Shown piece by piece: positions 30,652-48,128 of a stretch of 49,076 bases of DNA. The stretch comes from an uncultured Eubacteriales bacterium. GTDB lineage: Bacteria > Bacillota > Clostridia > Christensenellales > Aristaeellaceae. Position 1 is the stretch's first letter. Every line of letters begins with the position of its first letter. The notes under the pieces are model-generated. The model made no database searches and was not told the origin of the DNA. It saw only the letters and a program-made list of their open reading frames with translations. Location of the stretch: positions 1-49,076 of the forward strand of contig CADCJO010000008.1 in assembly GCA_902801765.1 (NCBI GenBank), in the 5' to 3' direction. The translations under genes were made by a program, and so were the position numbers.

Positions 30652-32382
30652 TTAGATACTCCACTCTGCGCTGGCAGTCTGCACCTGCGCCATACGGTGG
30701 AATGTGCTGTCCTCTTGAGCAAGCAAATCCTTGGGGCTGCCCTCTTCAGCAATCCTTCCATCGGACAGCACAACAATCTTGTCTGCGCCACTGACAGTAC
30801 GCATCCGGTGGGCGATGACCAAGACGGTTTTGTTCCGAATCAGGCGGGAAAGTGCCTCCTGAATGACCGTTTCATTTTCCACATCCAGACTGGCGCTGGC
30901 CTCATCCAGCAGAATGATCGGCGCATCCTTCAGGAAGGCCCGGGCAATGGAGATTCGCTGGCGCTCGCCGCCGGACAGCTCACTGCCGTTTTCTCCGGTG
31001 ACTGTATTATATCCCTGCGGCAGCTTTAGCGCGAATTCGTCGCAGTTCGCAAGTTTGGCCGCTGCCAGCACTTCCTCATCCGTGGCGTCCTTTTTCCCGA
31101 CGCGGATGTTTTCCAGAATGCTGTTATTGAACAGCGTCACATCCTGGAAAACGATAGAATAGACGCCCAGCAGCGTTTCCGGATCGATGCCGGAAATGTC
31201 CTGCCCGCCCACCGTGATCCGACCGTGGCTGACATCCCAGAACCGCGCCGCCAGGCGGGAAACGGTAGTTTTTCCACCCCCGGACGGGCCGACCAGTGCC
31301 GTGACCTGGCCCTGCTTTGCGGTAAAGGTCACATCCCGAAGAACGGTTTTCTCATGATCATAGGAGAATCCGACATTTTCAAAGCAGATGTCATATCCAT
31401 TTGGATGGAAGTTCGTCATTCCCGTCTGGGCCGGGCAATTCGTGATCTCATTCATCCGCTCCACCGGGACGGTCAGCAGGTTCAGCATACCCAGGTTAAT
31501 GAGGTTGCCGCTCATGGGCTCATACAGGCGGGAAGCTACCAGCAGGAAGGAGAAGAACTCCATCACATTCAGCCGCCCCTGCAAAAGCAGTGCGCTGCCG
31601 GCCACGGCCACCGTGCCGACGCCGATTTTCAGGATCAGTTGGGCAGAAACGATGAAGGCCGCCTGGCCCAGCTCCGCGCCGATGGCTTTCTTTTCCACAT
31701 CGTCGATTTTGCCGTCCAGTTCGGTCAGATAAGCGTCCTCCGCGTTGCAGCTTTTCAGATCGCGGGATGTCTCGATAAACTCCTGGACAGCGTCGTTCAG
31801 GCTCACCTTGGATTCGGACTGCCTACGGATGAAATGCTGCTGCACCTTTTTGGATGCCGCCACGATAAAGATGGCGATGGGGATCGGCCACACAGCCGCT
31901 AGAGCCATTTCCCATTTGTAGAAGAACAGGCCGACACAGATCAGCACAGTGGAGATCAGGCTGCTGTAGAACTGCGGGATCTGGTGAGAAGAGGCGTGCT
32001 CCAGAGTTTCGGCGTCCGCCATAATGGTGTTGGTCAGGTCCGCCAGATCCTTCTTTCCGAAGAAGGACAGCGGCAGCTTCCGCAGCTTTTCCGCCAGGGA
32101 AACGCGGCGCTTGCCGGATTCCACATAGGTCGCGAAGAACGTGGCGTTGTACTGCCAGACATTCGGGAGGAAGATCAGCACCAGGCAGGCCGCCGCAAAG
32201 AGCAGATAATACGCCCACCGTCCGGCGGCTGTACCGGACAGGTAATCCCCGGTAAACGCGAACAGCAGCCAGACGGGCGTCATCAGAGCGATGTTCGCGG
32301 CAGTGACCGCCAAAATCGCTTTGAGCATATCCGCCGCGCCTTTTTCCGTCAGCGCAAACCGTTTCATCAGATACCGCTTCAT
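30652..32382 (-). CDS. ABC exporter, permease/ATPase half-transporter 1
   Basis: The 576-residue half-transporter has a six-helix type IV exporter membrane domain (about 1-310) and a complete nucleotide-binding domain: Walker A GPSGGGKTT, Q-loop FQDVTLFN, signature LSGGERQR, Walker B IILLDEASASLD and switch IAHR. It overlaps the next half-transporter by 4 bp, so the two very likely form a heterodimer. Substrate unknown; the adjoining operons suggest export of a metal-related small molecule. It is the last gene of the operon starting at 38342. Confidence 0.92.
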   Translation of the reverse strand: MKRYLMKRFALTEKGAADMLKAILAVTAANIALMTPVWLLFAFTGDYLSGTAAGRWAYYLLFAAACLVLIFLPNVWQYNATFFATYVESGKRRVSLAEKLRKLPLSFFGKKDLADLTNTIMADAETLEHASSHQIPQFYSSLISTVLICVGLFFYKWEMALAAVWPIPIAIFIVAASKKVQQHFIRRQSESKVSLNDAVQEFIETSRDLKSCNAEDAYLTELDGKIDDVEKKAIGAELGQAAFIVSAQLILKIGVGTVAVAGSALLLQGRLNVMEFFSFLLVASRLYEPMSGNLINLGMLNLLTVPVERMNEITNCPAQTGMTNFHPNGYDICFENVGFSYDHEKTVLRDVTFTAKQGQVTALVGPSGGGKTTVSRLAARFWDVSHGRITVGGQDISGIDPETLLGVYSIVFQDVTLFNNSILENIRVGKKDATDEEVLAAAKLANCDEFALKLPQGYNTVTGENGSELSGGERQRISIARAFLKDAPIILLDEASASLDVENETVIQEALSRLIRNKTVLVIAHRMRTVSGADKIVVLSDGRIAEEGSPKDLLAQEDSTFHRMAQVQTASAEWSI

Positions 32383-34193
32383 GCCGTTTCACCTACTTTC
32401 CAATTGACAGCCTTCTGGTATTCCGCCCACATAGCTGCGTAGAGTCCGTTCTTTTGAAGAAGCTCGTCGTGTTTTCCCTGTTCTTCCACCCGGCCGTCCT
32501 TCAGCACATAGATCCGGTCAGCATTGCGGATCGTGGACAGGCGGTGGGCGATCATGAGCACCGTCCGTTCCCTGGCCATTTCCTGGAAGGCCAGCTGCAC
32601 CTGCGCTTCGCATTCCGGGTCAGCAAAGGCGCTGGCCTCGTCCAGAATCACCACGTCGGCATTCTTCAGCATAGCCCGGGCAATGGCGATACGCTGCTGC
32701 TCGCCGCCGGAGAGATAAGTGCCTTTGCTCCCCAATACTGTGTTGAGTCCTTCCGGCAAACGCCCGATGATGTCCATACACTGGGCTTTTTGAAGCGCTT
32801 CCATCATTTCGCCTTCGGTGGCGTCAGGTTTTGCGATGCGCAGATTGTCCGCGATGGAACGTTTGAGCAGGCGGCTGTCCTGGAAGACATAAGCCACGCG
32901 CCGCATCAGCGTTTCCTTGGAAATCTGACGGGCATCCACGCCGCCGATGAGCACCCGACCTTCCTGCGGATCGAAGAAACGGGAGATCAGCCCGGCCACG
33001 GTGGTTTTTCCGCTGCCGGAGGGGCCGACGATGGCCACGATCTCATTCTTGTCCGCTTTCAGGGACAGATGGGAAACCGCGGCGGTCGCGTCAAGCGTGT
33101 AACGGTAAGTCACATCCTGCAGTTCCACCGACGCGCCGCGAGGCTCCAGTGCACGCTTTGGCTCCGGCAGCGGCTGGATACTGAGAATCGTGTCCGTCCG
33201 GGCGATCGCGTCCTTGACCTTCATGTTGTTTTCGCTCATGAACATCACTTTCGTCATGGCCGTGGCAATGGCGGGCGTGAAGATGACGTAGAACAGGAAG
33301 TTCAGCAGGATATCCATCCGGTAATTATCCCCGCGGATCAGCAGCAGCGTCAGACCCAGGATGAAGACGAACGCGCTGTGGATCAGCACGGTGTATCCCA
33401 CCATGGATGGACGCATCATGCGGGTGTAGTGCATGCAGAAATCCCGGTAATCGTCGATGGATGCCTTGAACCGGTGGAAGGAAAACACCGTCTGCCCGAA
33501 GGTCTTGACCACCGGAATGCCCCGCACATACTCCACAGCCTCGTTGCTCATGCGTTCCAGGGCATTCTGGTACTGCCGCATGTCCTCCTGCATGGCCGGG
33601 CCCTCCATGCGCATCATCACGGCGAAGCTCAGCGCCACCGGGATCAGGCAGGCGACACCGTACCGCCAGTCATACAAAAACAGCATGGCCACCATGCAGA
33701 CCGGCATCGTGATCGCGCCCGCCATGTCCGGCAGGTTATGGGCCAGCAGCGTTTCGGTGGAGCCGGTCACCTCGGTCACGGTCCGGCGCACCTTGCCGGA
33801 ACCCATCTCGTCCGCAAAGCCAATAGGCAGGCGGGCGATGTGGCGCATCAGCGTCTTTTTCATATTGGCCGCCGTGCGGAACGCGCTGCCGTGGGAGCAG
33901 ACCAGAGCGCCTACATAGACAAGCCAGGCCAGGACGGCGAAAACCACGGCCATCCACCCGTTGCGCACGATGTCCGTCGCCCGGGAAAAGTCCGGCTGTA
34001 CCTCCAGCACCTCCCGGATGATGCGCCAGATGAAGACGAAGGGCAGCAGGGCCAGCACGCTGCTCAGCGCGGACAGGATCAGCGACAGGTATGTCAGCGA
34101 CTTAAAACGGCCCGCGTATTCCATCAGACGCCCAAAGGCCGTCGGCGACTTGCCCTGTTTCTTCTCTTTCAATGGATATCCCTCGCTTTCCAT
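32379..34193 (-). CDS. ABC exporter, permease/ATPase half-transporter 2
   Basis: The 604-residue half-transporter has membrane helices at about 32-305 and a nucleotide-binding domain with GPSGSGKTT, VFQDSRLL, YLSGGEQQR and VVILDEASAFADPE. The D-loop differs (AFADPE for ASLDPE), common in heterodimeric exporters and often tied to one degenerate site. The start at 34193 (MESEGYPLKEKKQGK) is chosen because the frame's upstream part is not conserved-looking. It has no good Shine-Dalgarno; a GGCGGCAGT...CTGCTGCCGCC hairpin lies just upstream. Confidence 0.92.
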   Translation of the reverse strand: MESEGYPLKEKKQGKSPTAFGRLMEYAGRFKSLTYLSLILSALSSVLALLPFVFIWRIIREVLEVQPDFSRATDIVRNGWMAVVFAVLAWLVYVGALVCSHGSAFRTAANMKKTLMRHIARLPIGFADEMGSGKVRRTVTEVTGSTETLLAHNLPDMAGAITMPVCMVAMLFLYDWRYGVACLIPVALSFAVMMRMEGPAMQEDMRQYQNALERMSNEAVEYVRGIPVVKTFGQTVFSFHRFKASIDDYRDFCMHYTRMMRPSMVGYTVLIHSAFVFILGLTLLLIRGDNYRMDILLNFLFYVIFTPAIATAMTKVMFMSENNMKVKDAIARTDTILSIQPLPEPKRALEPRGASVELQDVTYRYTLDATAAVSHLSLKADKNEIVAIVGPSGSGKTTVAGLISRFFDPQEGRVLIGGVDARQISKETLMRRVAYVFQDSRLLKRSIADNLRIAKPDATEGEMMEALQKAQCMDIIGRLPEGLNTVLGSKGTYLSGGEQQRIAIARAMLKNADVVILDEASAFADPECEAQVQLAFQEMARERTVLMIAHRLSTIRNADRIYVLKDGRVEEQGKHDELLQKNGLYAAMWAEYQKAVNWKVGETA

Positions 34194-34254
34194 ATACCGG
34201 ACAAAGGCGGCAGCAGTCTCAGCAAAGACCACTGCCGCCGCTATACGGTACGGT

Positions 34255-37200
34255 TTATTCCGCTGCGCAGTCCACCAGTTCATAGTTTGTCGGCTGATCG
34301 AAAGGAGGGCCATAGACGATCATCTCGTCCGACAGGAACCCGCCTCCGACGAAATCCCCGACATACTCCGCGCCTTCTCCCGTCGTGATCGTCACATTCT
34401 TCGTGCGGCAGTTTGTTACCTTCGTGACCGGAACGCCCAGCTCCGCCGGCTCATAGCCGCCGCAGTATCCGGTGATTCCGCCAATGTAGGAGCAATTGTC
34501 ACCCACCGTGATCTTTACATCCTCTGCCGTGCAGTCCTTAAAAAATTCAGAGCCAAACCCGCAGCCGGAAACGCCGCCGATACCATAACAGTTGCTGCCG
34601 ACTTGAATACTGCCATGCCCGATGCAGTTCGCGGCGCTGGTGTTCTGCCACCCGCCGCCGACAATACCCACGTTGGCTGTTTTTCCTTCTTCGATGGTGA
34701 TATTCACCTGAGCTTCGCAATCCGTAATCACACTGCCCATGGACGCTCCAACGATGCCACCGAACATGCCTTCCTCACTCATCTCATTGGGAACCACATG
34801 GATCACGCCATTTTCCAGCTTCACTCCGGAAATGGAAGACATGAAAGCATACCCCACCACGTCGGAGACCATCAGGAAACCTTCTGCCGAAACATCCTTC
34901 ACCGTCAGATTGGAGACGGAAGCATTGGCCAGGCAGCCGAACAGACCGGCCGTATAGGATTCACCCTGAGAAATGGTGAAATTGCTGATGGTGTGGCCGT
35001 TTCCGTCAAAGGTTCCCGTAAAGGCACAGTTCAGATCCGGGAATTCGGTGGGCTGCCCATTTTCATCAGAACCGGGCATAAAAACGCCCAGCGGCGCCCA
35101 TTCGCAGCCGTTCAGATCAATGTCGGCGGTCAATACATAATTCCCGGAAAGATTCTGGTTGACAGCAGCCAGTTCCTCGGCGGTGGCAATCTCGATCACT
35201 GCAGCAGCCGCGTCCTGTTTGACCCAGCTGATGACGCCATCGTCAGCCGTCAGCGTCAGAACAAGCTGTCCGCTTTCATTCGTGGTGAAGGCGTAAGGCG
35301 CGGATTCCGCTTCCCCTTCCATATTGCTATAAGCCACATACAGTCCCTTGCCGTCGCCCTTATCGCCCGTGTCTGCCGCAAAAGCCTCAAAGTCAGCGGT
35401 CTGTACACCGTTCATCATCGTGACGCCATGGCCGTTTTCATCGATGGTCATGGACAAGTCAACAGAAGCATATTCCTCCCCAAAGGGACTCATATCCGCC
35501 TGCCATGTGCCGACAAAGCCAAGATCATTCAGCTGCGCAAGGGCTTCCGGCGTATGCGCGGTATAGTCCATGTTCTCCAGGACAAACAGATCAATCACAT
35601 TTTCAGTCATCGCTTCATCCGCGTCCGCCGGGAAGCCCGCCGCCAGCCAGTAGGCATAGGGGCCTGCGTTGTATGCAGCCAGATCATCCACATTGCCGCC
35701 GTAGCGGAACTCCAGATGATAGGTGGAAGCGGGCGTGTCGGGCATCATGTAGAAATATCTGAACTCACCTGCGTCCTCGTCAGAGGTTTCGTAGAGAAAG
35801 CCCTCCATCATGCCGGCCAGGGACAGCTTTCCGGCGTAGGCGTATTCATGGCTGAAAATCTGATTGCCGCTTTCGTCCACACCGCTGATGCTCGTGCCGT
35901 CAAAGGTGATATTATTTACGCCATTGATAAAGAGGCAGTCAAACTGTGCGCCGTTGGAGCCGTCACCGAAGGCGTCAACCGCCTCCTGTCCGTAGATGGT
36001 GCCGTTGCATGCCGCTTTCAGCATCTCCGCCATGGCGGGGGCCGTCTCTTCGCCCAGGATCGCCGCGCAGGGGTCAAGCCAGAGCGCATCGTACTTCGGG
36101 TCCGTGATCACAGGAAACAGCGGCACATAAGTGCCTTTGACCGCTTTCAGCAGGTCAGCAGCTTCCGCAGCTTCGTCAACTTTGACATAGGGGAAGGCCA
36201 ACTCGGGATAACCGAAAGCCGCGATTGTGACCGTGTACTGTTTTCCCGCTTCAAACAGGGGACTCTCACTGCCGTTGCGGGCTTTAACCACGCCGTCCGC
36301 GTTCAGCATGCCGTTTTCATCCAGGGCGATAAAGTTCCCAACCGTGCCATGATGGCCCACGATTTCCTGCTCAACAGGCTTTTCCGCGCCTTCAGCCAGA
36401 ATCTGAACGTGCTGGATATTGGCCAGGTAATCGGTCATGGAGCCCGAAGCCAGCACAATACCCTTTCCGTCAAAGGTGATATCTTCAGCAGTCAGGCCGC
36501 TGTCAATGATGAAGTACGGAGCCTGCGCCGCGGCGGGGCCGCCCTCGAAGGACGGGGCGCGGTACTTGCCGCTGGCGTCCACCACGTTCACATAGTAGTA
36601 TCCGGGTTTCAGGCTGGCGGCATCCTGGAAGCTGATCGTCACATTGCCGTCCGCGATCTCCACGGTATAGCTGTCCATGGGCACGACTTCTTCATTGCGC
36701 ACACCCCAGCGGATGTCCAGCACCTGGAGATCGAAGTCTTCGGGCAGGGCATTGGCCAAGGTCACCAAACCGCCGTCAACAGATTCCACCGGCAGCGCGG
36801 AGCCTTCCACTTCCAGGAAGGTCTTGCCAGTCTTGCCGTCAAAGGCGTTTAGCACGGCTTCCTGGGCGGCTGCGCTGACCATGGTCGCGCCGGAAACGGC
36901 ATCAGCGCCGCCGGGGGTCATGTCCATGGCAGCCACTTCATCTCTGCTCTTCCCGACAAAACTGTCCAGCAGGCCTGCATTCACAGCCGCGTCGAAATAA
37001 GGTTTGTTCTTGTTTGCCCAAAATTCTTCATTGCCCTCCTGCACAGAGCCTGGTCCGCCGGTGCCGTTATCCTTTACGGCGGTGATGACGCCGCTGTCAT
37101 CCACTTCAACCGTCAGCCTGACATTGTAAAACGGGGGATGAATGAAAGGCGCGGTGGAGGGGTAATTGCGCTGATCCACATTGGCGTCACCCTCCAGGGT

Positions 37201-37281
37201 CTGATCAGCGAGTGCGCAGCATACGGACAGCGCAAGACAAAGCGCAATCACGAATGCGGTTATCGAGCGAAATTTTTTCAT
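34255..37281 (-). CDS. Large secreted FMN-binding, ZinT-like, GLUG-repeat protein
   Basis: The 1008-residue exported protein has a signal peptide (cleavage after CCALA, residue 25) and then an FMN-binding domain (about 50-150) with the flavinylation motif DAVSGATMVS, where Thr133 would take FMN covalently. A beta-rich stretch follows, then a ZinT/AdcA-like metal-binding region (about 370-595, YHLEFRYGGN, GPYAYWLAAGFP, VGTWQADMSPFG) and a GLUG-type beta-helix C-terminus (about 695-1008, GLFGCLANASVSNLTV, FGGIVGASMGS). No sortase signal or other anchor is seen. GGAGG precedes the ATG. With flavodoxin upstream, extracellular electron transfer or metal capture is plausible. Confidence 0.8.
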   Translation of the reverse strand: MKKFRSITAFVIALCLALSVCCALADQTLEGDANVDQRNYPSTAPFIHPPFYNVRLTVEVDDSGVITAVKDNGTGGPGSVQEGNEEFWANKNKPYFDAAVNAGLLDSFVGKSRDEVAAMDMTPGGADAVSGATMVSAAAQEAVLNAFDGKTGKTFLEVEGSALPVESVDGGLVTLANALPEDFDLQVLDIRWGVRNEEVVPMDSYTVEIADGNVTISFQDAASLKPGYYYVNVVDASGKYRAPSFEGGPAAAQAPYFIIDSGLTAEDITFDGKGIVLASGSMTDYLANIQHVQILAEGAEKPVEQEIVGHHGTVGNFIALDENGMLNADGVVKARNGSESPLFEAGKQYTVTIAAFGYPELAFPYVKVDEAAEAADLLKAVKGTYVPLFPVITDPKYDALWLDPCAAILGEETAPAMAEMLKAACNGTIYGQEAVDAFGDGSNGAQFDCLFINGVNNITFDGTSISGVDESGNQIFSHEYAYAGKLSLAGMMEGFLYETSDEDAGEFRYFYMMPDTPASTYHLEFRYGGNVDDLAAYNAGPYAYWLAAGFPADADEAMTENVIDLFVLENMDYTAHTPEALAQLNDLGFVGTWQADMSPFGEEYASVDLSMTIDENGHGVTMMNGVQTADFEAFAADTGDKGDGKGLYVAYSNMEGEAESAPYAFTTNESGQLVLTLTADDGVISWVKQDAAAAVIEIATAEELAAVNQNLSGNYVLTADIDLNGCEWAPLGVFMPGSDENGQPTEFPDLNCAFTGTFDGNGHTISNFTISQGESYTAGLFGCLANASVSNLTVKDVSAEGFLMVSDVVGYAFMSSISGVKLENGVIHVVPNEMSEEGMFGGIVGASMGSVITDCEAQVNITIEEGKTANVGIVGGGWQNTSAANCIGHGSIQVGSNCYGIGGVSGCGFGSEFFKDCTAEDVKITVGDNCSYIGGITGYCGGYEPAELGVPVTKVTNCRTKNVTITTGEGAEYVGDFVGGGFLSDEMIVYGPPFDQPTNYELVDCAAE

Positions 37282-37314
37282 AACGGAACCTCCTTTATGC
37301 TGTTCTGTGTTCTG

Positions 37315-37731
37315 TTACGCGAGCGCCGCGCCCAGCGCCTTGCAGGCAGTCAGGCCATCCTCATCCGGCGCTTCATTCACCGTTACGCTGTCCGCGGCCA
37401 GGGTGATGCCCTTTTCCGCGCAGCGCGCCTCCCAGGAGCGCATCCATTCACCGTCGCCCCAGCCGTAGGAGCCGAACAGGGCAGTCTTTTTGCCGGCCAG
37501 CGCCGCTTCGATGCTCTCCAGCATCGGGAGGAATTCGCCGTCCTCCAGTTCTTCCGCGCCCATGGCCGGGCAGCCCAGCGCCACAGCGTCATAGGCTTCC
37601 ACGCCATTCACCTCCGTGCAGGTCAGCAGATCGGCCTCCGCCCCAGCCGCCTTCACGCCTTCCGCCACGGCCTGCGCCATAGCCTCCGTGTTGCCGGTTC
37701 CGCTCCAGAAGATTACCGCAACTTTGCTCAT
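37315..37731 (-). CDS. Flavodoxin, short chain
   Basis: The 138-residue flavodoxin starts MSKVAVIFWSGTGNTEAMAQ; the phosphate loop SGTGNTE (10-16) and the FMN ring loops LGCPAMGAEELED and FGSYGWGDGEWM are complete. It is a soluble low-potential electron carrier that often replaces ferredoxin when iron is scarce. Start at 37731 has AAAGGATGG upstream. It lies between DUF3793 and the secreted flavoprotein in one operon. Confidence 0.95.
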   Translation of the reverse strand: MSKVAVIFWSGTGNTEAMAQAVAEGVKAAGAEADLLTCTEVNGVEAYDAVALGCPAMGAEELEDGEFLPMLESIEAALAGKKTALFGSYGWGDGEWMRSWEARCAEKGITLAADSVTVNEAPDEDGLTACKALGAALA

Positions 37732-37793
37732 GAGAATACCATCCTTTCTTTTGTGGTCTATTCCAATCCCTTGCGGGGTCATGAATAGCATGG

Positions 37794-38342: not shown

Positions 38343-38374
38343 TTCAGCCTCCCTCAAACAGTGTCTGTTTATTA

Positions 38375-38390
38375 GTTAGTCAAATCTAAT
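38375..38390. promoter_or_regulatory. Operator GTTAG-N6-CTAAT, site 1
   Basis: GTTAG-TCAAAT-CTAAT, about 33 bp upstream of the DUF3793 start. It is the same 16-bp pattern as sites 2-4 (38451, 47805, 48113), with one outer base changed. Confidence 0.7.
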
Positions 38391-38450: not shown

Positions 38451-38466
38451 GTTAGTCTTTTCTAAC
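38451..38466. promoter_or_regulatory. Operator GTTAG-N6-CTAAC, site 2
   Basis: GTTAG-TCTTTT-CTAAC, a perfect inverted repeat just downstream of the -10 box of the promoter at 38473-38501, overlapping the expected transcript start. That position suits repression. Confidence 0.8.
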
Positions 38467-38472: not shown

Positions 38473-38501
38473 ATAATAGCATGTTTCAAATGAGTTGTCA
38501 A
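38473..38501 (-). promoter_or_regulatory. Promoter of the DUF3793-flavodoxin-exporter operon
   Basis: Minus strand TTGACA, 17 bp, TATTAT. The transcript would start inside operator site 2 and run to ABC half-transporter 1 at 30652. The -35 box is 8 bp beyond the stop codon of the upstream gene. Confidence 0.88.
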
Positions 38502-40891: not shown

Positions 40892-40903
40892 ACCGGTTCC
40901 TCC

Positions 40904-41527
40904 TTACTTTCTCGCAATGACAGTGATCCACGGTTTCGACGGATGATGGTCACGACTCACCCTGGAAAAGCCTGCCGCTTTCAGCGCCGCTTCAATTTGC
41001 TCCGCCGTATAGCATTTCATCCCGTCGATGATGCCCTCGTACTTCTTGCCCGTATCGTCAGCGCCGTCCGATTCGTTGCAGATCATGAAGACCCCGCCCG
41101 GCTTCAGGATACGGGCGACCTGGGCGAAACACTTCTCCAGCCCTGGCCAGAAGTAAACCGTCTCAAAGGCGGTCGCCAAATCGAAGGAACTGGCCGGAAG
41201 CCTAAGGTCGGACACGTCCCCTTGCCGCACCTCGCACCGGCCCGCGGCAATGGCCGCCTGATTGAAGGCTTTTGCCTTTTCCACGGACAGATCGGAATAG
41301 TCAATGGCCGTCACATGCGCCTTCGGATACTTTTTCAGCAGCTCCCCGGCGTTGCGTCCGCCGCCGCAGCCCAGGTCCACAGCCTTCTCAGGCGTGATGG
41401 GCGGCAGATGGGAAAAGCCCCAGTCGGCCATGACGGCGTGGCCGGAGTTCATACCGCTCAGCATCACTTTCCCGAGAAAGCCCTCCGGTTTCCTTGTCTG
41501 GCTGACAAACTTTTTGAACAGACCCAT
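40904..41527 (-). CDS. SAM methyltransferase, soluble
   Basis: The 207-residue class I methyltransferase has AVDLGCGGGRNAGELLKKYP (49-68), AIDYSDLSVEKAKAF, GDVSDLRLPASSFDLATAFE and KPGGVFMICNESD. I chose the ATG at 41527 (MGLFKKFVSQTRKPEG, AAGGGG about 9 bp upstream) because the fold starts there. An ATG at 41581 with GGAGG 9 bp upstream adds 18 residues and is a real alternative. Substrate unknown. Confidence 0.88.
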   Translation of the reverse strand: MGLFKKFVSQTRKPEGFLGKVMLSGMNSGHAVMADWGFSHLPPITPEKAVDLGCGGGRNAGELLKKYPKAHVTAIDYSDLSVEKAKAFNQAAIAAGRCEVRQGDVSDLRLPASSFDLATAFETVYFWPGLEKCFAQVARILKPGGVFMICNESDGADDTGKKYEGIIDGMKCYTAEQIEAALKAAGFSRVSRDHHPSKPWITVIARK

Positions 41528-41612
41528 ATTTCCATCCCCTTTTTTGAGCTTTTCTTTGTTTTCCGCGTAGTAGCTGTGCATCGCCCGTATCCTCCAAATG
41601 TTTCATTCACCG

Positions 41613-42608
41613 TCAGAACAGCATGTTCAGTCCCGCCACCGCCAGCCCCGCAACGGGACAGACGATCAGCGTCCACAGCAGTCCGTGCTCCGGGATGGCC
41701 AGCGTTTTCAGCCACTCCCAACGTTTCCACGCCTTGCAGTGCTCCGCGCCTTTGATGAAGGGTTTGGCCTTCGGCGGAAGCCAGCAGTCGAGGATCAGGA
41801 AATCGGACAGGCTCACCATGGTCATTTCCACATAGCCCGCCCAGAACAGGTTCCAGAAGCCGGTCATTCCCGCAAAATGCGCGCTGACCGCCCAATAGAC
41901 AAGCAGCACAAGATACAGCGGATACAGGATCAGCTTCATGGTGCGGACATCCTTCTTCTCAACAAAAGGAGCCGCGGCCTGTCTGATTTCCTTCGGGAAC
42001 ATGGTGCTGTACGCCTGCGGCACCAGCAGGAAGCCAAGTCCCGCCACTGCGTTGAACAGCAGGGACATTGCCAGTCCGTCCAGGATGATTCTCGGCCAGT
42101 TCATCCATTCACCCCCCCTGATTATCAGCGTGATCCACGCCATCAGCGCGCACACTAACGGAAACGCGATCAGTCGGATTATCTGGTTTTTTATGTTGAA
42201 GCTGCGGTCATCCCAGCTTTTGCAGCCCCTTGTCTCCGGGTAGAATTGCACAAAATACTTTCTGGTGATCACGATGTACTGATCCTGCACCAGAATATCG
42301 AACAGCTTGTAGCCGTACAGAAACAGCATGTACCGGCCGAACAGCAGCCAGAAGCCGTAACCGCGCCTGAGACCATCCGCACCGAGAAAGAAAAGCACAC
42401 CCGCGTATCCCGCCGCCGCAAGAGCCGTGAGCAGATAACCGATCATCTGTCTGCCGACAGGCGGATCGGGATGCTCTTTCGCCGCCTCCCGGATGTCCCG
42501 CGGCAGAAAGCGCATGAGCGCCTTTGTGGCCGCAAAATGCGGAATGATCAGAATGAACGCCAGCGAGAGGAGACAAACGGCTGCAAGGGCAGCCAGCGTC
42601 GTGATCAT
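41613..42608 (-). CDS. Polytopic membrane protein, fusion of families A and B
   Basis: The 331-residue protein has about eight membrane helices and no name I know. Its first half matches the stand-alone gene at 43867-44367: YGFWLLFGRYMLFLYGYKLFD against FGFWQFFMRFVLIFTIYKVYD, then FNIKNQ against YNIKSQ, each followed by an FP...AW helix. Its second half resembles the stand-alone gene at 42640-43149 (LILDCW...IKGAE...W..W against LFIDTIW...IPGTED...W). Start at 42608 has GAGGAGG 8 bp upstream. It is probably a membrane enzyme or transporter subunit of this pathway. Confidence 0.8.
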   Translation of the reverse strand: MITTLAALAAVCLLSLAFILIIPHFAATKALMRFLPRDIREAAKEHPDPPVGRQMIGYLLTALAAAGYAGVLFFLGADGLRRGYGFWLLFGRYMLFLYGYKLFDILVQDQYIVITRKYFVQFYPETRGCKSWDDRSFNIKNQIIRLIAFPLVCALMAWITLIIRGGEWMNWPRIILDGLAMSLLFNAVAGLGFLLVPQAYSTMFPKEIRQAAAPFVEKKDVRTMKLILYPLYLVLLVYWAVSAHFAGMTGFWNLFWAGYVEMTMVSLSDFLILDCWLPPKAKPFIKGAEHCKAWKRWEWLKTLAIPEHGLLWTLIVCPVAGLAVAGLNMLF

Positions 42609-42639
42609 GCTGCAGACCTCCTCTTTTCCCAAATCAGCA

Positions 42640-43149
42640 TTACATCATTCTTCCGATCAGCCAGTATAATCCGCCCACCAACGCCGCCAGCGGTACCGAG
42701 AACGGAATCAGCTGCAGCATTTTCCATTGCTTCACATGGACGCTGTGCCAGGTATCATTCAGATCTTCCGTGCCGGGGATCAGCCACCAGTCGGACAGGG
42801 CCACCCAGATGGTGTCGATGAACAGCCAGTCAAAGAATTCCGCGCCGAGGAACAGCGCATAAAACTGCCGGCAGCAGTCCCACCAGCTCCTCGCGCCGTT
42901 GATCCAAAGGATCATGACGCCGGGGATTACCAGTATCCATGCGATGAGCAGGATGTAGGCAAACCGCTTTCTTTTCCGGAATTCCGCTTCGGTAATCAGG
43001 CCCAGGGCCTTGACCCGGTCAATCATCGCCTGCGGATAGAAGAAGATGCCGCCCACGGGGCCGCGTTTGTGCACAAGAACAGCCATGTAGGCCGCGTAGC
43101 ATACCCACAGGATCAGGATCTCAAGGATGATTCTCCCAAACATGCCCAT
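42640..43149 (-). CDS. Polytopic membrane protein, family B (stand-alone)
   Basis: The 169-residue protein has about four membrane helices (residues ~8-26, 64-84, 95-112, 145-165). Notable is AEFFDWLFIDTIWVALSDWW followed by IPGTEDLNDTW, the part shared with the second half of the fusion protein downstream. It begins right after the UbiE-like methyltransferase (3 bp gap), whose stop lies within its GGAAGTGAG site. Function unknown. Confidence 0.8.
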   Translation of the reverse strand: MGMFGRIILEILILWVCYAAYMAVLVHKRGPVGGIFFYPQAMIDRVKALGLITEAEFRKRKRFAYILLIAWILVIPGVMILWINGARSWWDCCRQFYALFLGAEFFDWLFIDTIWVALSDWWLIPGTEDLNDTWHSVHVKQWKMLQLIPFSVPLAALVGGLYWLIGRMM

Positions 43150-43152
43150 TTC

Positions 43153-43833
43153 TCACTTCCCGCACCGGAAACAGCCAATTCCCTCAACAGCTGAGACCTC
43201 GGCGTTCTGATACATCCGGGAAAGCCTCTCCCGCAGACTGCTTTGCGTTTCATAAGGCGCGGTGAAAAAGCCTTTCGGCTGATAGAGATGCCTGATGAAC
43301 CAGTCCGTCCGCCCGCACTCGTCTTTAATATAGAAACATCCGCAGAATGTGCCGCCTTTTTTCAGCACGCGATAAGTCTCCCGGTACGCGGCTTCCTTGT
43401 CCGGAAAGGCATGGAAGCCGTTCAGGGACAGCACGATGTCGAAACTCTCGTCCACGAATGGCAGCGCACCCACATCACCCTGCGTGAATGCCACGTTGGC
43501 GATGCCGAGCCGCTTTGCTTTCTCCTGCGCCGAGGCCATCATGTCCGGGGAATAGTCCAGGCAGGTGATCTCCGCCTGCGGCAGCGATTGCCAGACCGGC
43601 ATGGTCAGCACACCCGTGCCCACCGGCACCTCCAGCAGCTTTCCCGAAAAGTCCTCCGGAATGCCGGAGAGGGCCTTCTCCAGATAAGCTGCGTTCTTCT
43701 CTCCGTCCATGTTCCATACCACGCGGCAGATCGCCTTCCCCAGCCATGTGGAATAGGTCATCATGCCGTCGTAAAAGCTGGCCTGTCCGCCGGTGGTCCT
43801 GTAGGCGTTCCTGATCTGATCTTTCCTTGTCAA
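43153..43833 (-). CDS. SAM methyltransferase, UbiE-like
   Basis: The roughly 226-residue protein has LLEVPVGTGVLTMPVWQSLP as motif I, CLDYSPDMMASAQEKAK, GDVGALPFVDESFDIVLSLN and KKGGTFCGCFYIKDECGRTD. It ends in a short Cys pair (CFRCGK). The start is unsure: a GTG at 43845 touches its own GGA, while the TTG at 43833 has AAGGAG 11 bp upstream, so I use the TTG. Substrate unknown. It sits between the stand-alone family A and B membrane genes. Confidence 0.87.
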   Translation of the reverse strand: MTRKDQIRNAYRTTGGQASFYDGMMTYSTWLGKAICRVVWNMDGEKNAAYLEKALSGIPEDFSGKLLEVPVGTGVLTMPVWQSLPQAEITCLDYSPDMMASAQEKAKRLGIANVAFTQGDVGALPFVDESFDIVLSLNGFHAFPDKEAAYRETYRVLKKGGTFCGCFYIKDECGRTDWFIRHLYQPKGFFTAPYETQSSLRERLSRMYQNAEVSAVEGIGCFRCGK

Positions 43834-43866
43834 GATGATACTCACTCCTTCGTTTTTGAAACTTCG

Positions 43867-44367
43867 TCACTGGAACAATGTGCATACCCAGGCCGCGATT
43901 GCCGAAGCCGCTGGGAATATGACCAGGAGCTTCAGCAGCTGGCTTTTGATGTTGTAACCGTATTTCTTCAGGGGATACACACTTCCCACCTCCGGGAAGT
44001 AGTACTGGAAGAACTGAAACTTCATCAGCAGAAAGTAGTCAAAGCAGACCAGGTCGTAGACTTTGTAGATCGTGAAGATCAGCACAAATCTCATGAAAAA
44101 CTGCCAGAAGCCGAAACCGCTTCTGAAGCCGTCCCAGATGGAAACGATTCCCACACCCAGGATCATGAGGACGCTGAAGCTCATGAGCGTCCAGCCGATG
44201 GTTCTTGCACCGACAAACAGTTCCTTTTCACGGGGAAGGATCGCCTCCCGCGCCTCTCTGGGGGCAGAGGAGAAAAGCTCCTTCTTCTGAATGAACGCTA
44301 CGGCCGACAGCAGCATCAGCGTGATCGCCGCGCAGAACACGACGGCCAGGAATATCGTGAGCAGCAT
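43867..44367 (-). CDS. Polytopic membrane protein, family A (stand-alone)
   Basis: The 166-residue protein has about four membrane helices (3-24, 58-78, 85-105, 143-163). The conserved core FGFWQFFMRFVLIFTIYKVYD and YNIKSQLLKLLVIFPAASA is repeated in the first half of the fusion protein at 41613-42608. GGAGGGATCAT precedes the ATG. Function unknown. Confidence 0.8.
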   Translation of the reverse strand: MLLTIFLAVVFCAAITLMLLSAVAFIQKKELFSSAPREAREAILPREKELFVGARTIGWTLMSFSVLMILGVGIVSIWDGFRSGFGFWQFFMRFVLIFTIYKVYDLVCFDYFLLMKFQFFQYYFPEVGSVYPLKKYGYNIKSQLLKLLVIFPAASAIAAWVCTLFQ

Positions 44368-44382
44368 ATGATCCCTCCAGGA

Positions 44383-45096
44383 TTATTTCTTCACGCTGAC
44401 CAGCAGACCGTTTTCCTTTTTCACCAGCTCGTACGCCTGCGCGAGGGGATGTCGATCTCCCACAATACAGTAATCGCAGCAGGGCGATTCGACGCAGGTC
44501 CCTTCCCGGATCAGGCAGGCGTGGAGGTTCTGCATGGCCAGATGGTCGCAGTTGCACATGATGGGCAGCACGTCCTCCATGTGATGGCGTTTGGCGAATT
44601 CCGCATTGGGGCATTGGGTAAAGCTGTAGCGGATCACGCCGTTTTCCCTGTCATAGGAGCAGGAACCCATCCGGAAGGAGCCGGGGAAGCGCTTGATCTC
44701 CTCGACCCGTATGTCGTTGGCCTTCTGAAAGATCCGGCTGGCGAGGCGGTTGTCCAGCCTGCGGTTGAGGTTGAAGATTTTGCCCAATGCGTCGAATGAC
44801 CCCATAAAACAGTCAAAAATGTCCTGCTGTACTTCTTCCAGTTGTGGCTTAACCGGAACGACTTTGTACCAGGCGAAGATCAGGATCGGGTCATAGATGC
44901 TGACCTTGATCTTCGCGCCGGCCATGGGCGGCTCATCCCTGAGAAACTCGCAGTACTGCAGCTGGATCTTCTCCCAGAGCTGTTCGCAGGTCTGATCATC
45001 ATAATCACGATGCAGAAGCCGCAGAACGCATTTCTTTGCCTTCTTTGTGTAGATTGCGTGTCGGGCGCGGTCGATGGGCAAGTCCTTTTCTTTCAC
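44383..45096 (-). CDS. ATC-hydrolase-like cysteine-rich protein 2
   Basis: The 237-residue protein resembles the ATC hydrolase family (PF14196): FTQCPNAEFAKRHHMEDVLP, then MCNCDHLAMQNLHACLIREG, then TCVESPCCDYCIVGDRHP. Eight Cys and several His in the last 90 residues suggest a metal or thiol site. The start is the GTG at 45096, which overlaps the stop of the upstream gene by 4 bp (GTGA). It is only distantly similar to the other ATC-like protein at 38509, so they likely do different steps. Confidence 0.78.
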   Translation of the reverse strand: MKEKDLPIDRARHAIYTKKAKKCVLRLLHRDYDDQTCEQLWEKIQLQYCEFLRDEPPMAGAKIKVSIYDPILIFAWYKVVPVKPQLEEVQQDIFDCFMGSFDALGKIFNLNRRLDNRLASRIFQKANDIRVEEIKRFPGSFRMGSCSYDRENGVIRYSFTQCPNAEFAKRHHMEDVLPIMCNCDHLAMQNLHACLIREGTCVESPCCDYCIVGDRHPLAQAYELVKKENGLLVSVKK

Positions 45097-46097
45097 TGTG
45101 CTTCGCCTTCTTTTGTGTACTGTTTCCGGATCGCATCCCACCCAGGCATCTGTGCTTTCAGCTCCCGCCAGCTGGACATGGGGAATTCCGGCCTGCGGGC
45201 AAGTACCTTCTCGAACTCCTCATCCAGCATCTCCATCTCCTCAAAGGCGTTCCGGCAATGCTCACAGGCGATGAGATCCCCGGCGGTTTTCCACTTGGCC
45301 ATGCCGAAATAGAGAAGCTGCATGACTGTGCCTTTGATTCCGGGGGCGTAGTATTGATCATCGCCCTCCGGCAGAATCGGGATGCCCTGTGCCTTCAACA
45401 TGGTGTACGCCTCCCGGGAGGCCATGCGCATGAGCCTTCGCTGTTTCCCAGTGGAGCCTGTCAGATCCCCATTGCAGGTATAGGCCAGATAGCAGATGGG
45501 AAGCACTGCCGCCAGATGGCAGATGAGATAGGCCTCCATATCCGGCTGCCAATGAAACTTGTAGCCGGTTCTGCCAAACATGTCTGTCATCTTTGATCTT
45601 GTGGGGGCGTCAACTTCGCCGTGCAGACATCCAATGTCCATGGCGCCAACACCAGCCCGTTCGCAGATCAGCATGCCTTTTTCATGATCCCGTTTGCCCG
45701 CAGTGGCCTGAAAACCGAACAGCACCTGCTTTTCGCACACCGAATGATCCAGAATTGCCTGCTGCATATCGGCGGGACGCATGTTGTTGCCTACCAGCAC
45801 AATAATCGGAGCATGAATGGCCGCCAGCGGTTCAAGGATCGCCGGCATTTTGTTGTACGGCATGACGGCGAATACTGCGTCATAGGCTTTTTCCTCTTCA
45901 ATGCCGCCGATCACCCTCGGGTGATCCAAGGTGGTCTTCCGCTGGAGATGATGGCGGATCCGCAATCCGTTCCGCTGCAGCTGCTCTTTCCATGGACCGC
46001 GGGCCAACAGCGTCACATCATTCTCGGCTGTGCAAAGGACATGCGCCAGACAACAACCGATCACGCCGGAGCCGTAAACCAGTACCTTCATCTTCAT
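45093..46097 (-). CDS. Ketopantoate reductase-like NAD(P) oxidoreductase
   Basis: The 334-residue protein has an N-terminal Rossmann fold (KVLVYGSGVIGCCLAHVL, about 3-20), then VTLLARGPWKEQL, VFAVMPYNKMPAIL and a helical C-domain, as in ApbA/PanE ketopantoate reductases. No pantothenate genes are near, so it probably reduces another 2-oxo acid or ketone in this pathway. ATG at 46097 has AGGAG 4 bp upstream; the ATG at 46091 is equally possible. Confidence 0.87.
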   Translation of the reverse strand: MKMKVLVYGSGVIGCCLAHVLCTAENDVTLLARGPWKEQLQRNGLRIRHHLQRKTTLDHPRVIGGIEEEKAYDAVFAVMPYNKMPAILEPLAAIHAPIIVLVGNNMRPADMQQAILDHSVCEKQVLFGFQATAGKRDHEKGMLICERAGVGAMDIGCLHGEVDAPTRSKMTDMFGRTGYKFHWQPDMEAYLICHLAAVLPICYLAYTCNGDLTGSTGKQRRLMRMASREAYTMLKAQGIPILPEGDDQYYAPGIKGTVMQLLYFGMAKWKTAGDLIACEHCRNAFEEMEMLDEEFEKVLARRPEFPMSSWRELKAQMPGWDAIRKQYTKEGEAQ

Positions 46098-46129
46098 CGC
46101 TCTCCTGATGCTTTCCGGGGCGGCCCGCT

Positions 46130-46897
46130 TCATACCGGCGTCTCCATAAACTCATCGATGGCCTTCAGCACCGGCTCGGTGTACTGCTCCCCGCCAAAGA
46201 GCCACTGTTCGTGCTGCATATCAAATTCACGGATTTCCGGATCGCGAAAGTACTTCCTGTAGCGTTTCAAATATTTCTCGCCCATCTTTTTGGCATAGAT
46301 GAAGTGGACCAAAGTGTGTTCCACATGGATGCCGTCTTCAAGATGCGTGAGCAGATCCGTGTAGTACTCGTTCCGGATGGATTCGGGCCTGAATTTTGAG
46401 AAGCAGCCCATGAACCTGTCAGCCGTTTCATCGTTCATCTCAAAGAATGACTTGAGCTTTTCCCTGGCCTTGGCCTGTTTCTTTTCGCTGCCGGTGAAGC
46501 TGGTCAGCAGCGGCACCACGAGCTTCGACTGCAGCCAGGCGCTGAACTTTCCGCTCTGGTCGAGATCGGGGCTGCCGAAGATGCCGTGATCGATATGCAC
46601 CTTCCGCCGCATGATCAGCTGCCCCACGAAGGTGCTGCCCAGGGAGGAGCCGAGCGCCCCGTCCAGCTTCCCACCGAAGTGCTCCTGAATGTATCCCTCG
46701 ATCCTCTCCGTCACCGTGATCATATCCGGGAAAACTGCGCCGCTTCCGTCAAAGCCGTCATAGTTGACGCAGATCAGGTGATATTTTTCCCCAAGCCTGT
46801 CCAGTACTGTGGCGAAATTCGTCTGATAATCGCAGGCTGTACCCGGAAGGAGCATCAGCGTTTTGCCGGACAGATTGCCCATCTCATCAAACTGCAT
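46130..46897 (-). CDS. Alpha/beta hydrolase 1
   Basis: The 255-residue alpha/beta hydrolase has LMLLPGTACDYQTNF as its oxyanion strand and the nucleophile elbow LGSSLGSTF (Ser85). An insertion rich in Lys and Phe (about 125-200) forms a cap. A late Asp and His (His209 or His230 region) could complete the triad. GGAGGCGATATAA precedes the ATG, and the upstream gene ends 1 bp away. Substrate unknown. Confidence 0.87.
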   Translation of the reverse strand: MQFDEMGNLSGKTLMLLPGTACDYQTNFATVLDRLGEKYHLICVNYDGFDGSGAVFPDMITVTERIEGYIQEHFGGKLDGALGSSLGSTFVGQLIMRRKVHIDHGIFGSPDLDQSGKFSAWLQSKLVVPLLTSFTGSEKKQAKAREKLKSFFEMNDETADRFMGCFSKFRPESIRNEYYTDLLTHLEDGIHVEHTLVHFIYAKKMGEKYLKRYRKYFRDPEIREFDMQHEQWLFGGEQYTEPVLKAIDEFMETPV

Positions 46898-47788
46898 TTA
46901 TATCGCCTCCTTCATCAGCCGCACCATCAGATCCCATCCCTCTTTGGCCTCTTTCACGATCGGGAAGACGGGATAGCAGTGGAACATCCCTTCGCCGACG
47001 ATCATCTTCATGGCTGCCTCAAAGGACGGCGCGCAGGCATACAGCGTTTCGTCAGAACCATAGATGAAGGTCACCCGGGGGCAGCCCGTAAAATCGCCCC
47101 GCTGCAGCCAGATCATGTAGTCCGGCACGCTGTTGTCCCCGTGGCGCATGACCTCCACGGCGGTTTTCATATACTGGGCCGGGATGGCCACATCCTTTTT
47201 GTCCAGTTCAACCATCCGCTGCCACTCTTCTTCGGTATCCACACAGGTCCCCGGTGAGAGGGCCATGATATAGCCCGGCATCGGCGTATCCCCGTGCCCG
47301 GCATTGATGTATGGCACCATGCCCAGCGCCAGATTCCCGCCTGACGATGTGCCCAGAACGGAAATACGCTCCGGGGCGTAATCCCTGAGCATCACTTTAT
47401 AGGTCTCATGGATCATCTCATAGGCTTTGGTCAGCGGATAATCCGTGCACAGTGGATAGTAGGGGATGAACAGATCAAGTCCCGTTTCCTTCGCAAACCG
47501 CAGCGCATTTTTGACGGAGGCCGGCCTCGGCGCGCTGATCATACCGCCGCCGATCAGGAAGAGATTCGCCCTGTTCGTATGTTCTTTGTGAATCAGCTTC
47601 AGCACGGGAAAACCCATGACGTCGATCCGGCTGAATTCAAAAGCGTCGTCCTTCAAAGCCGGGATGCGGTTCTTTGCGTTCTGCTTCCTGCGATCCTCCA
47701 GGAGCTCTTCCGTCGTGACGCTGAGCCATCGCTTTTTGAGACCTGCCGCCACAACCAGCTTTTTCAGCAATTCATACTTGAAAGACAT
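46898..47788 (-). CDS. Alpha/beta hydrolase 2, HSL/alpha/beta-hydrolase-3-like
   Basis: The 296-residue protein has the nucleophile elbow LGTSSGGNLALGM (Ser148), as in the hormone-sensitive-lipase group. The usual HGGG oxyanion motif reads IGGG (79-82), so the His is lost. YGSDETLYACAPSF and CYPVFP near the end hold the likely Asp and, less clearly, His. GAGGTGAGG is 4 bp before the ATG at 47788. Operator site 3 lies 17 bp upstream of the start. Confidence 0.86.
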   Translation of the reverse strand: MSFKYELLKKLVVAAGLKKRWLSVTTEELLEDRRKQNAKNRIPALKDDAFEFSRIDVMGFPVLKLIHKEHTNRANLFLIGGGMISAPRPASVKNALRFAKETGLDLFIPYYPLCTDYPLTKAYEMIHETYKVMLRDYAPERISVLGTSSGGNLALGMVPYINAGHGDTPMPGYIMALSPGTCVDTEEEWQRMVELDKKDVAIPAQYMKTAVEVMRHGDNSVPDYMIWLQRGDFTGCPRVTFIYGSDETLYACAPSFEAAMKMIVGEGMFHCYPVFPIVKEAKEGWDLMVRLMKEAI

Positions 47789-48068
47789 TTGCCTCACCTC
47801 GTTTGTTAGAGTCGACTAACCTCTCTGCAAAAAATAATGCACGTTCAGTGCTTATCTGTTTAGTCCTTCCTGCTGCTTTTCTCTGACATTTCTTTCGGCT
47901 TGGCCCGGATCTGTGCTTTTCCGGTTTGACCGCGTCTTTCGGAATCGCCCAGGATCTGCCCAGTTGCTCTGCGCCTGGAATTCTTCCGTCCAATACATAC
48001 TGATTCACCCAGCGCACAGAGATACCCCAGCGCCTTGCCGTCTCCTGTACAGAGCAATAGCCTTTCAC
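47772..48068 (-). CDS. Small helix-turn-helix DNA-binding protein
   Basis: The 98-residue protein opens with a MerR/excisionase-like helix-turn-helix: GYCSVQETARRWGISVRWVN and DGRIPGAEQLGRSWAIP, then a basic tail KPEKHRSGPSRKK. The GTG at 48068 has GAGGTG 5 bp upstream; a GTG at 48086 has none. The last ~25 codons run through operator site 3 and 17 bp into the hydrolase gene, so the frame may have been extended by loss of an earlier stop. It could regulate the operon or be a mobile-element leftover. Confidence 0.65.
   Translation of the reverse strand: MKGYCSVQETARRWGISVRWVNQYVLDGRIPGAEQLGRSWAIPKDAVKPEKHRSGPSRKKCQRKAAGRTKQISTERALFFAERLVDSNKRGEANVFQV
47805..47820. promoter_or_regulatory. Operator GTTAG-N6-CTAAC, site 3
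   Basis: GTTAG-AGTCGA-CTAAC, a perfect inverted repeat, just upstream of the ribosome binding site of alpha/beta hydrolase 2. A weak -10 (TATTTT) lies upstream on the minus strand; a promoter here is possible but not clear. Confidence 0.75.
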
Positions 48069-48112
48069 AACAACACCTCGTATCACGGGCAGCAGGATCA
48101 GGAGGTGAATAG

Positions 48113-48128
48113 GTTAGCAACCTCTAAC
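48113..48128. promoter_or_regulatory. Operator GTTAG-N6-CTAAC, site 4
   Basis: GTTAG-CAACCT-CTAAC, located immediately downstream of the -10 box at 48132-48137, the same geometry as site 2. Confidence 0.8.

What the first reader, a model, noticed from the sequence alone, without database searches (positions are those of the whole stretch)
30652..48128. Candidate undescribed metal-responsive small-molecule island: methyltransferases, ATC-hydrolase-like proteins, hydrolases and an exporter under one operator
Seen: two co-directional operons (38342 to 30652 and 48068 to 38509). They encode four SAM methyltransferases (one membrane-anchored), two Cys-rich ATC-hydrolase-like proteins, two alpha/beta hydrolases, a ketopantoate-reductase-like enzyme and three related membrane proteins. 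They also encode a heterodimeric ABC exporter, flavodoxin, DUF3793 and a secreted FMN/ZinT-like protein. Known: flavodoxin often replaces ferredoxin in iron shortage, and ZinT binds zinc. Inference: the enzymes build or modify a small, perhaps thiazoline- or thiol-containing, metal-binding molecule that is exported and recovered. There is no NRPS or PKS, so standard cluster tools could miss it.
Basis: partly seen in the sequence, partly recalled or inferred. Interest (0 to 1): 0.82.

Follow-up and report, generated by a model that had tools for sequence, protein, structure and literature searches.

The report
Iron-controlled gene island in gut bacteria
This bacterial DNA carries a set of enzyme and transport genes that seems to be switched by iron, recurs in ever-changing combinations in many gut bacteria, and probably serves to win iron through a small molecule that we could not find described.

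Summary
The gene set is real. The two operons share a palindrome, TTAG-N6-CTAA: 4 copies in the window, 0.09 expected. Of 9 copies in the genome, 4 are here and 3 precede an FTR1/P19/FtrD iron locus. One ATC-like protein has 402 relatives; the best 80 loci (many gut or rumen bacteria, including Faecalibacterium) carry the same families in shuffled order and 118 copies (6.9 expected; other spacings 0-8), also before DtxR-type repressors, FeoB, FTR1 and ZIP genes. Iron control is well supported; co-occurrence holds in 33 of 42 well-covered loci.

Corrections: the ABC pair resembles the importers YbtPQ/IrtAB; a control pair from the same genome resembles a drug exporter. The ATC-like proteins have a V4R/H-NOX/TRAPP-like fold; 140 of 141 keep Cys155, Cys174, Asp177 and Arg191. 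The small membrane proteins form one unnamed four-helix family with two invariant aspartates (84 of 84).

Whether the enzymes make or dismantle a ligand is unknown. Of 12 island genomes none has an NIS synthetase and 10 have no NRPS condensation domain. Verdict: new variant of an iron-acquisition locus.

The parts
48132..48159 (-). Promoter-like site of operon 2 (TTGTCT-16-TATAAT)
   Evidence: consensus match only, 0.6 expected in shuffles
48114..48127 (.). Operator copy 1, TTAGAGGTTGCTAA, directly after the -10 hexamer of operon 2
47772..48086 (-). HTH_17 (excisionase-type) DNA-binding protein, first gene of operon 2; a similar protein with an operator in front of it lies in L079 (by eye)
47806..47819 (.). 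Operator copy 2, TTAGTCGACTCTAA, just upstream of the 299-aa hydrolase
46898..47797 (-). Alpha/beta hydrolase (Abhydrolase_3, HSL type), 299 aa
46130..46897 (-). Alpha/beta hydrolase-like protein, 255 aa; only a sub-threshold Pfam hit
45093..46133 (-). Ketopantoate-reductase-like (ApbA) protein
44383..45141 (-). ATC2, ATC_hydrolase family (PF14196), Cys-rich
43867..44367 (-). MEM family four-helix membrane protein (166 aa) with two invariant Asp
43153..43845 (-). Class I SAM methyltransferase (MT_D, UbiE-like)
42640..43149 (-). MEM family membrane protein (169 aa)
41613..42632 (-). Two MEM domains fused in one 339-aa protein; separate genes in relatives
40904..41581 (-). Class I SAM methyltransferase (MT_C)
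40112..40891 (-). Methyltransferase with hydrophobic N-terminus (MT_mem); nearest NCBIfam models ArsM and UbiE types, below cut-off
39225..40064 (-). LCM-type methyltransferase (PF04072)
38509..39141 (-). ATC1, ATC_hydrolase family (PF14196); V4R/H-NOX/TRAPP-like predicted fold; 402 relatives in the genome collection
38473..38501 (-). Promoter-like site of operon 1 (TTGACA-17-TATTAT)
   Evidence: consensus match only, 0.6 expected in shuffles
38452..38465 (.). Operator copy 3, TTAGAAAAGACTAA
38376..38389 (.). Operator copy 4, TTAGATTTGACTAA
37794..38357 (-). DUF3793 protein
37315..37791 (-). Flavodoxin (short type, over the TIGR01753 cut-off)
34255..37281 (-). 1008-aa protein with a signal-like N-terminus (by eye): FMN_bind domain with a DxxSGAT motif, a stretch weakly like AdcA (ZinT-like), GLUG-like repeat below cut-off
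32379..34313 (-). ABC half-transporter 1, YbtP/IrtA-like
30652..32382 (-). ABC half-transporter 2, YbtQ-like

Best explanation
It is an iron-starvation-induced metal-acquisition island. A DtxR-type repressor sits on the TTAG-N6-CTAA operators when iron is plentiful; when iron is short both operons are expressed (operator shown by computation, repressor and response inferred). The ABC pair imports a metal chelate as YbtPQ and IrtAB do, the secreted FMN/ZinT-like protein captures or reduces metal outside, and flavodoxin replaces ferredoxin (inferred). The methyltransferases, ATC-like V4R-fold proteins, hydrolases, reductase and membrane proteins tailor a small, probably lipophilic ligand at the membrane. 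I commit, weakly, to the view that the cell makes this ligand itself from a primary metabolite, without NRPS or NIS, and that lineages vary its structure by shuffling paralogues.
For: Operator: 4 in the window vs 0.09; 9 sites genome-wide, 4 in the island and 3 before FTR1-P19-FtrD; FeoAB with one mismatch in the extended form. 118 sites in 80 relatives vs 6.9 expected, other spacings 0-8, 88 of 118 within 350 bp upstream of labelled genes, stretches that make up 22% of the bases. Sites before DtxR, FeoB, FTR1, ZIP, DUF2325 and DUF6110 genes. Importer-type ABC with an own-genome control. Conserved, shuffled gene set. HMA-like, ZIP and P1B-ATPase genes near ATC1 in relatives.
Against: No ligand-building enzyme was recognised among the families seen. 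3 of 42 well-covered loci have ATC1 with none of the other enzyme or membrane families and 6 have only one; in L096, L127 and L133 it stands beside ZIP and, in the last two, FTR1-type permeases, so ATC1 may act in plain metal handling. No DtxR gene was found in this 81%-complete assembly. Genome-wide the exact operator (9 places) is rarer than the reversed control pattern (34), and with one mismatch the extended form (5 rows) does not exceed its control (13), so the FeoAB match alone is weak. HMA and ZIP suit zinc or copper as well as iron. Only 22 of 42 well-covered ATC1 gene runs have a box.
Confidence: 0.45

Rival explanations
1. The island imports and dismantles foreign chelates (siderophores of other bacteria, haem, or iron-binding dietary phenols). 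The ABC pair brings the complex in and the hydrolases, ATC-like proteins and methyltransferases destroy or mask the ligand so that iron is released; the enzyme mix varies because the menu varies.
For: Importer-like ABC pair; hydrolases and a reductase but no recognised scaffold builder; V4R/H-NOX/PoxR-like fold, a superfamily with haem- and phenol-binding members (PMC5847659 passage); no NIS genes in 12 of 12 and no condensation domain in 10 of 12 island genomes chosen.
Against: Known siderophore breakdown (recalled) uses esterases and reductases, not several methyltransferases; the membrane families would be unexplained.
Confidence: 0.25
2. No small-molecule pathway: an iron-limitation programme of metal trafficking and membrane or cofactor remodelling. 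ATC-like proteins are thiol metal binders that work with ZIP, HMA and P1B proteins; the methyltransferases and membrane proteins remodel lipids or quinones.
For: ATC1 with ZIP and FTR1-type genes and little else in some loci; three conserved Cys plus Asp in nearly all ATC proteins; HMA-like, ZIP, P1B-ATPase and DUF6110 genes close to ATC1.
Against: Does not explain several distinct ATC groups and several methyltransferases in one island, or the siderophore-type ABC pair.
Confidence: 0.2
3. One reading: the ABC pair exports a small metabolite made by the operon, under metal control.
For: Exporter fold of the ABC pair; the NCBIfam models listed first are of MsbA type, though far below cut-off; TetR genes beside ABC pairs in some relatives.
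Against: Single-unit best matches are YbtP/IrtA and YbtQ, whereas an own-genome MarR-linked pair matches the TM287/288 exporter; iron operators sit before ABC1 in 7 cases.
Confidence: 0.08

Closest known systems
Yersiniabactin and equibactin type loci (YbtPQ importer, DtxR-family or AraC regulator)
   Same: YbtPQ-like half-transporter pair, iron-type operators, AraC gene before the secreted-protein and ABC genes in Faecalibacterium loci. PMC6814731 (passages) reports an equibactin-related siderophore cluster with a DtxR/MntR gene beside a salicylate synthase gene in a Clostridioides island.
   Different: No NRPS, salicylate synthase or adenylation gene recognised in the island; ATC-like, MEM and LCM families not mentioned in the passages seen.
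IrtAB mycobactin importer
   Same: Heterodimeric ABC importer with exporter fold; second-best single-unit match to ABC1.
   Different: No SIP-type domain among the Pfam hits of ABC1 or ABC2; no mycobactin synthesis genes recognised.
P19/FTR1/FMN-binding iron assimilation clusters (PMC8238504, passages)
   Same: Same operator in this genome; both kinds can include FMN-binding proteins.
   Different: Separate locus (contig 36); no methyltransferase or ATC-like gene seen by eye beside FTR1.
ATC_hydrolase family PF14196 and V4R/H-NOX/PoxR superfamily
   Same: Pfam match over cut-off; predicted fold matches H-NOX, TRAPPC3 and PoxR/MopR domains at TM about 0.4 or less; Cys cluster as described in PMC5847659 (passage).
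   Different: Up to five paralogue groups within one locus (16 groups at 45% linkage); activity on the thiazoline unknown.
tolI of the tolyporphin cluster (PMC8401325, passage)
   Same: An ATC_hydrolase family gene inside a small-molecule cluster.
   Different: Cyanobacterial tetrapyrrole pathway with hem genes and P450s; none recognised here.

Membership tests
DtxR-type iron regulon | Shared palindromic operator at island promoters and iron-transport genes | tested here: met
   the FeoAB site is weak
DtxR-type iron regulon | The same operator in front of a DtxR-family gene | tested here: met
   L073 (4 sites), L115 (2), L101 (1); PF01325 and PF02742 over cut-off; these are relatives, not this genome
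DtxR-type iron regulon | DtxR gene in this genome | tested here: not met
   PF02742 none, PF01325 one sub-threshold hit within a MarR gene; assembly 81% complete; FUR also none
DtxR-type iron regulon | Iron-dependent expression | not testable with these tools
   needs transcripts
YbtPQ/IrtAB siderophore importers | Two ABC half-transporters closest to YbtP/YbtQ/IrtA | tested here: met
   ABC1: 6p6i_A 328, IrtA 285, YbtQ 273, MsbA 236 bits; ABC2: YbtQ 267, TM288 258, 6p6i_A 255 bits (best 60 of 258 rows each); margin small for ABC2; control pair
YbtPQ/IrtAB siderophore importers | Uptake of a metal chelate | not testable with these tools
   needs transport assay
NRPS or NIS siderophore cluster | Condensation or IucA/IucC domains in the locus | tested here: not met
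   none among the island proteins scanned; NIS 0 of 12 genomes; condensation 2 of 12, not in the window
L-ATC hydrolase | PF14196 over cut-off | tested here: met
   85.3 and 35.9 bits vs 28.1
L-ATC hydrolase | Hydrolysis of 2-aminothiazoline-4-carboxylate | not testable with these tools
   needs assay
Opine metallophore (staphylopine type) | Opine dehydrogenase and nicotianamine-synthase-like genes | tested here: not met
   the only PDB match of the reductase at E<=0.01 is 2-dehydropantoate 2-reductase 3hwr, and Pfam gives ApbA; no nicotianamine synthase among the Pfam hits shown

The most novel reading that the evidence does not exclude
A large, undescribed class of metallophores made without NRPS, PKS or NIS enzymes, whose structures are diversified across gut Bacillota, Faecalibacterium included, by mixing paralogous V4R-fold ATC-like enzymes, two-aspartate membrane enzymes and methyltransferases under one iron operator.
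Probability: 0.3. Interest if true: 0.9.

Novelty: new variant of a known kind. Interest (0 to 1): 0.72.

Why it matters
How strictly anaerobic gut commensals such as Faecalibacterium acquire iron is, to my knowledge (recalled), poorly known. An iron-controlled, recombining island that standard cluster tools would probably miss because it has no NRPS or PKS gives a concrete gene set to delete, express and extract. It also points to an unnamed membrane-protein family and places several ATC-like paralogues in an iron context.

Tried and rejected
MerB-like chemistry for the ATC proteins (a CxxD...C resemblance recalled from memory): not borne out, the predicted fold (pLDDT 95) lists H-NOX/TRAPP/PoxR chains first and no MerB among the 50 rows shown. 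Opine-type metallophore: not supported. Gene fusions as clues: of 17 long ORFs listed, most show one domain at the C-terminal end, so probably 5' extensions; three show two labels and were not followed. PDB profile searches with the ATC and MEM alignments gave nothing credible, and the MEM model has no PDB fold match below E=2.5. Shr haem-receptor domain in the secreted protein: below cut-off in the window protein and weaker in the L034 homologue. Flavinylation as the common theme: the DxxSGAT motif is in the window protein but in 0 of 9 homologues listed. DtxR, MarR and FUR scans of the own genome did not identify the regulator. The ten literature searches (PMC open-licence papers only; listings, then passages of six papers) showed no description of the island or its operator; one search asked among others for a literal pattern that papers would rarely print.

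Limits: ORF calls and family labels are mechanical (longest non-overlapping ORFs, HMMs from few seeds; methyltransferase labels may cross over). The MBL count (43 genes in 36 loci) included small HMA-like proteins and was corrected to 26 in 26; with that correction the count of loci with two or more further families fell from 35 to 33 of 42. The 42 loci are those of the 80 with at least 5 kb on both sides of ATC1.
Full report
Observation. The window is the whole of contig 8 of a 2.40-Mb, 93-contig, 81%-complete assembly. The membrane set is larger than stated: the 339-aa protein is two members of one family fused, and its halves, the two other window proteins and 49 proteins of 20 related loci fall in one family by iterated profile search. 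An HTH_17 protein starts operon 2.

Operator. TTAGN6CTAA occurs 4 times in the window and nowhere in it outside the island, against 0.09 expected; none of 100 shuffles reached 4. Copies 1 and 3 lie directly after the -10 hexamers of two promoter-like sites, the place of a repressor site; such promoter matches are common by chance (0.6 expected per stretch). In the whole genome there are 9 sites: 4 in the island, 3 in front of a gene run with FTR1, Fe2+ transport protein (PF10634) and FtrD-like domains, and one each on contigs 13 and 31, which I could not link to iron. The genome total is no excess in itself: the reversed control pattern has 34 places. What counts is that 7 of 9 fall at two promoter regions. 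An extended form with one mismatch precedes a FeoA-FeoB fusion gene, but its control gives more rows (13 against 5), so that match alone is weak. PMC8238504 (passages) describes P19/FTR1 clusters as iron assimilation systems, so iron is the natural reading.

Relatives. The membrane protein gives matches in 38 of 200 genomes of the family, 18 of 50 genera. PF14196 is found in 17 of 60 genomes searched, own included. A profile of ATC1 gives matches in 17 of 391 genomes of the class, 5 of them (own included) at E below 1e-100, in four families. The island is thus patchy. In the genome collection ATC1 gave 402 relatives, of which the best 80 were kept, at 70-91% identity; the record titles show mostly metagenome bins, many from rumen or gut, and also Faecalibacterium prausnitzii, F. 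longum and Hominifimenecus. In those 80 loci there are, by HMM, 148 ATC genes (80 loci), 86 MEM (44), 41 LCM (39), 37 MT_D (35), 55 ABH255 (33), 34 ABC1 (30), 28 ZIP (28), 26 MBL (26), 27 MT_C (26), 23 MT_mem (23), 24 ABC2 (22), 21 MT_F (21), 21 ketopantoate-reductase-like (20), 18 HMA-like (18), 9 DUF3793 (9), 9 of the secreted protein (9) and 6 flavodoxin (6). Many loci are cut by contig ends. Of the 42 with at least 5 kb on both sides of ATC1, 33 have two or more further enzyme or membrane families within about 10 kb, 6 have one and 3 have none (an earlier count of 35 used wrong MBL labels). Of the 20 loci chosen by the membrane protein instead, 16 hold ATC genes. The order of genes differs from locus to locus.

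Operator in relatives. The 80 loci hold 118 TTAGN6CTAA sites against 6.9 in Markov samples and 10 for the reversed pattern. Spacers of 0 to 12 other than 6 give 0 to 8. The sites lie in 54 of 80 loci; 1 of 118 lies inside a labelled gene; 88 of 118 lie within 350 bp upstream of labelled genes, stretches that make up 22% of the bases. The 20 MEM-selected loci, which overlap with these, hold 45 sites against 2 for the reversed pattern. The consensus is GTTAGN6CTAAC. Genes with a site in front include three DtxR-family repressors (PF01325 and PF02742 over cut-off), FeoB, FTR1, ZIP, DUF2325 and DUF6110 genes (one or more of each kind scanned with Pfam, the others named by similarity). Against this: no DtxR gene was found in the window's own incomplete assembly, nor FUR, and only 22 of 42 well-covered ATC1 gene runs carry a site.

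Transporter. Among single-unit solved transporters listed, ABC1 is closest to 6p6i_A (328 bits; partner of YbtQ in 8vsi, YbtP by recall), then IrtA (285), YbtQ (273) and MsbA (236); ABC2 to YbtQ (267), TM288 (258) and 6p6i_A (255) (best 60 of 258 rows shown). Two-unit P-glycoproteins list higher because two stretches are summed. As a control, a MarR-linked pair from the same genome matches TM287/TM288 best (452 and 486 bits), with no YbtPQ or IrtA in the 60 rows shown. Against this, the 25 NCBIfam models shown include no siderophore importer and begin with MsbA-type models, all far below their cut-offs. I therefore read the pair as an importer of the YbtPQ/IrtAB kind, with a thin margin for ABC2.

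Protein families. The ATC1 model (pLDDT 95, 73 sequences) matches H-NOX, TRAPPC3 and PoxR/MopR domains (best 6mx5, E 5.9e-4, the only match below 0.001, TM about 0.4), in line with the relation of ATC hydrolase, V4R and HNOB stated in PMC5847659 (passage). In 141 aligned members (two from the window) Cys155 is kept in 141, Cys174, Asp177 and Arg191 in 140 each and all four together in 140, Asp203 in 137, Cys202 in 136 and Thr194 in 135; they fall in 16 groups at 45% linkage, and a locus holds one to five different groups. The membrane family has four long helices (pLDDT 89), two Asp invariant in 84 of 84 aligned members, and no solved-structure match. Both patterns suggest shared function with varied specificity, which is inference.

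Metal genes beside ATC1. In relatives HMA-like proteins, ZIP transporters, P1B-type ATPases and DUF6110 proteins stand next to or near ATC1; of two HMA-like proteins scanned one passes the Pfam cut-off and one falls just short. I saw none of these in the island of this window.

What it does. Iron control is the best-supported step. Import of a chelate is inferred from the ABC pair. That the enzymes act on a small ligand is inferred from their kinds. Whether they make or break it is open: no scaffold-building enzyme was recognised, 12 of 12 island genomes chosen lack IucA/IucC, and 10 of 12 lack NRPS condensation domains (several of the 12 are incomplete; the window's genome has two such domains in one frame on contig 38, with no operator site on that contig). 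I lean to a self-made ligand because several methyltransferases and membrane proteins are hard to explain in a breakdown route. PMC9674144 (passage) lists a STRING cluster named after the ATC hydrolase with the numbers 7 and 14, which I read as 7 of 14 genes, as enriched in one co-expression module of F. prausnitzii; this fits a co-expressed set.

Novelty. The ten literature searches showed no description of the island. Its parts belong mostly to known families; the combination, the membrane family and the scale of shuffling appear new. I score it as a new variant of an iron-acquisition locus, interest 0.72. The recount from 35 to 33 of 42 did not change my odds.

Noticed in passing
window 29903-30331: A TnpV-type transposon protein (Pfam) lies just downstream of ABC2, on the other strand; a similar protein lies downstream of ABC2 in L033 (2404-2745, seen by eye), hinting at transfer.
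   Followed up: partly
window 48673-49076: Direct repeats: a 56-nt unit twice in tandem and a third, 83% alike 46-nt copy ending at the last base of the contig, plus a 22-nt inverted repeat at 48943-48988.
   Followed up: partly
window 28255-29757: A 500-aa protein resembling GMP synthase, with an unusual ATP-loop sequence (TGGLNSG); judged by eye, no family search.
   Followed up: no
G000 contig 38, 1251-5600: An NRPS frame of about 2075 aa with two condensation domains in the window's own genome, without the iron operator on its contig.
   Followed up: no
L073:1363-1821, L115:6620-7000, L101:2776-3168: Short DtxR-family repressors (127-153 aa) with 4, 2 and 1 operator copies in front; in L115 beside FeoB. 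Candidate regulators.
   Followed up: partly
L153:1344-1742 (G000 contig 36): An AraC-like gene (by eye) divergent from the FTR1 gene; the three operator copies lie between them.
   Followed up: no
G000 contig 13 45307-45320 and contig 31 27344-27357: Two further operator copies not clearly tied to iron genes; the first lies about 100 bp upstream of a ferredoxin-like gene (by eye).
   Followed up: partly
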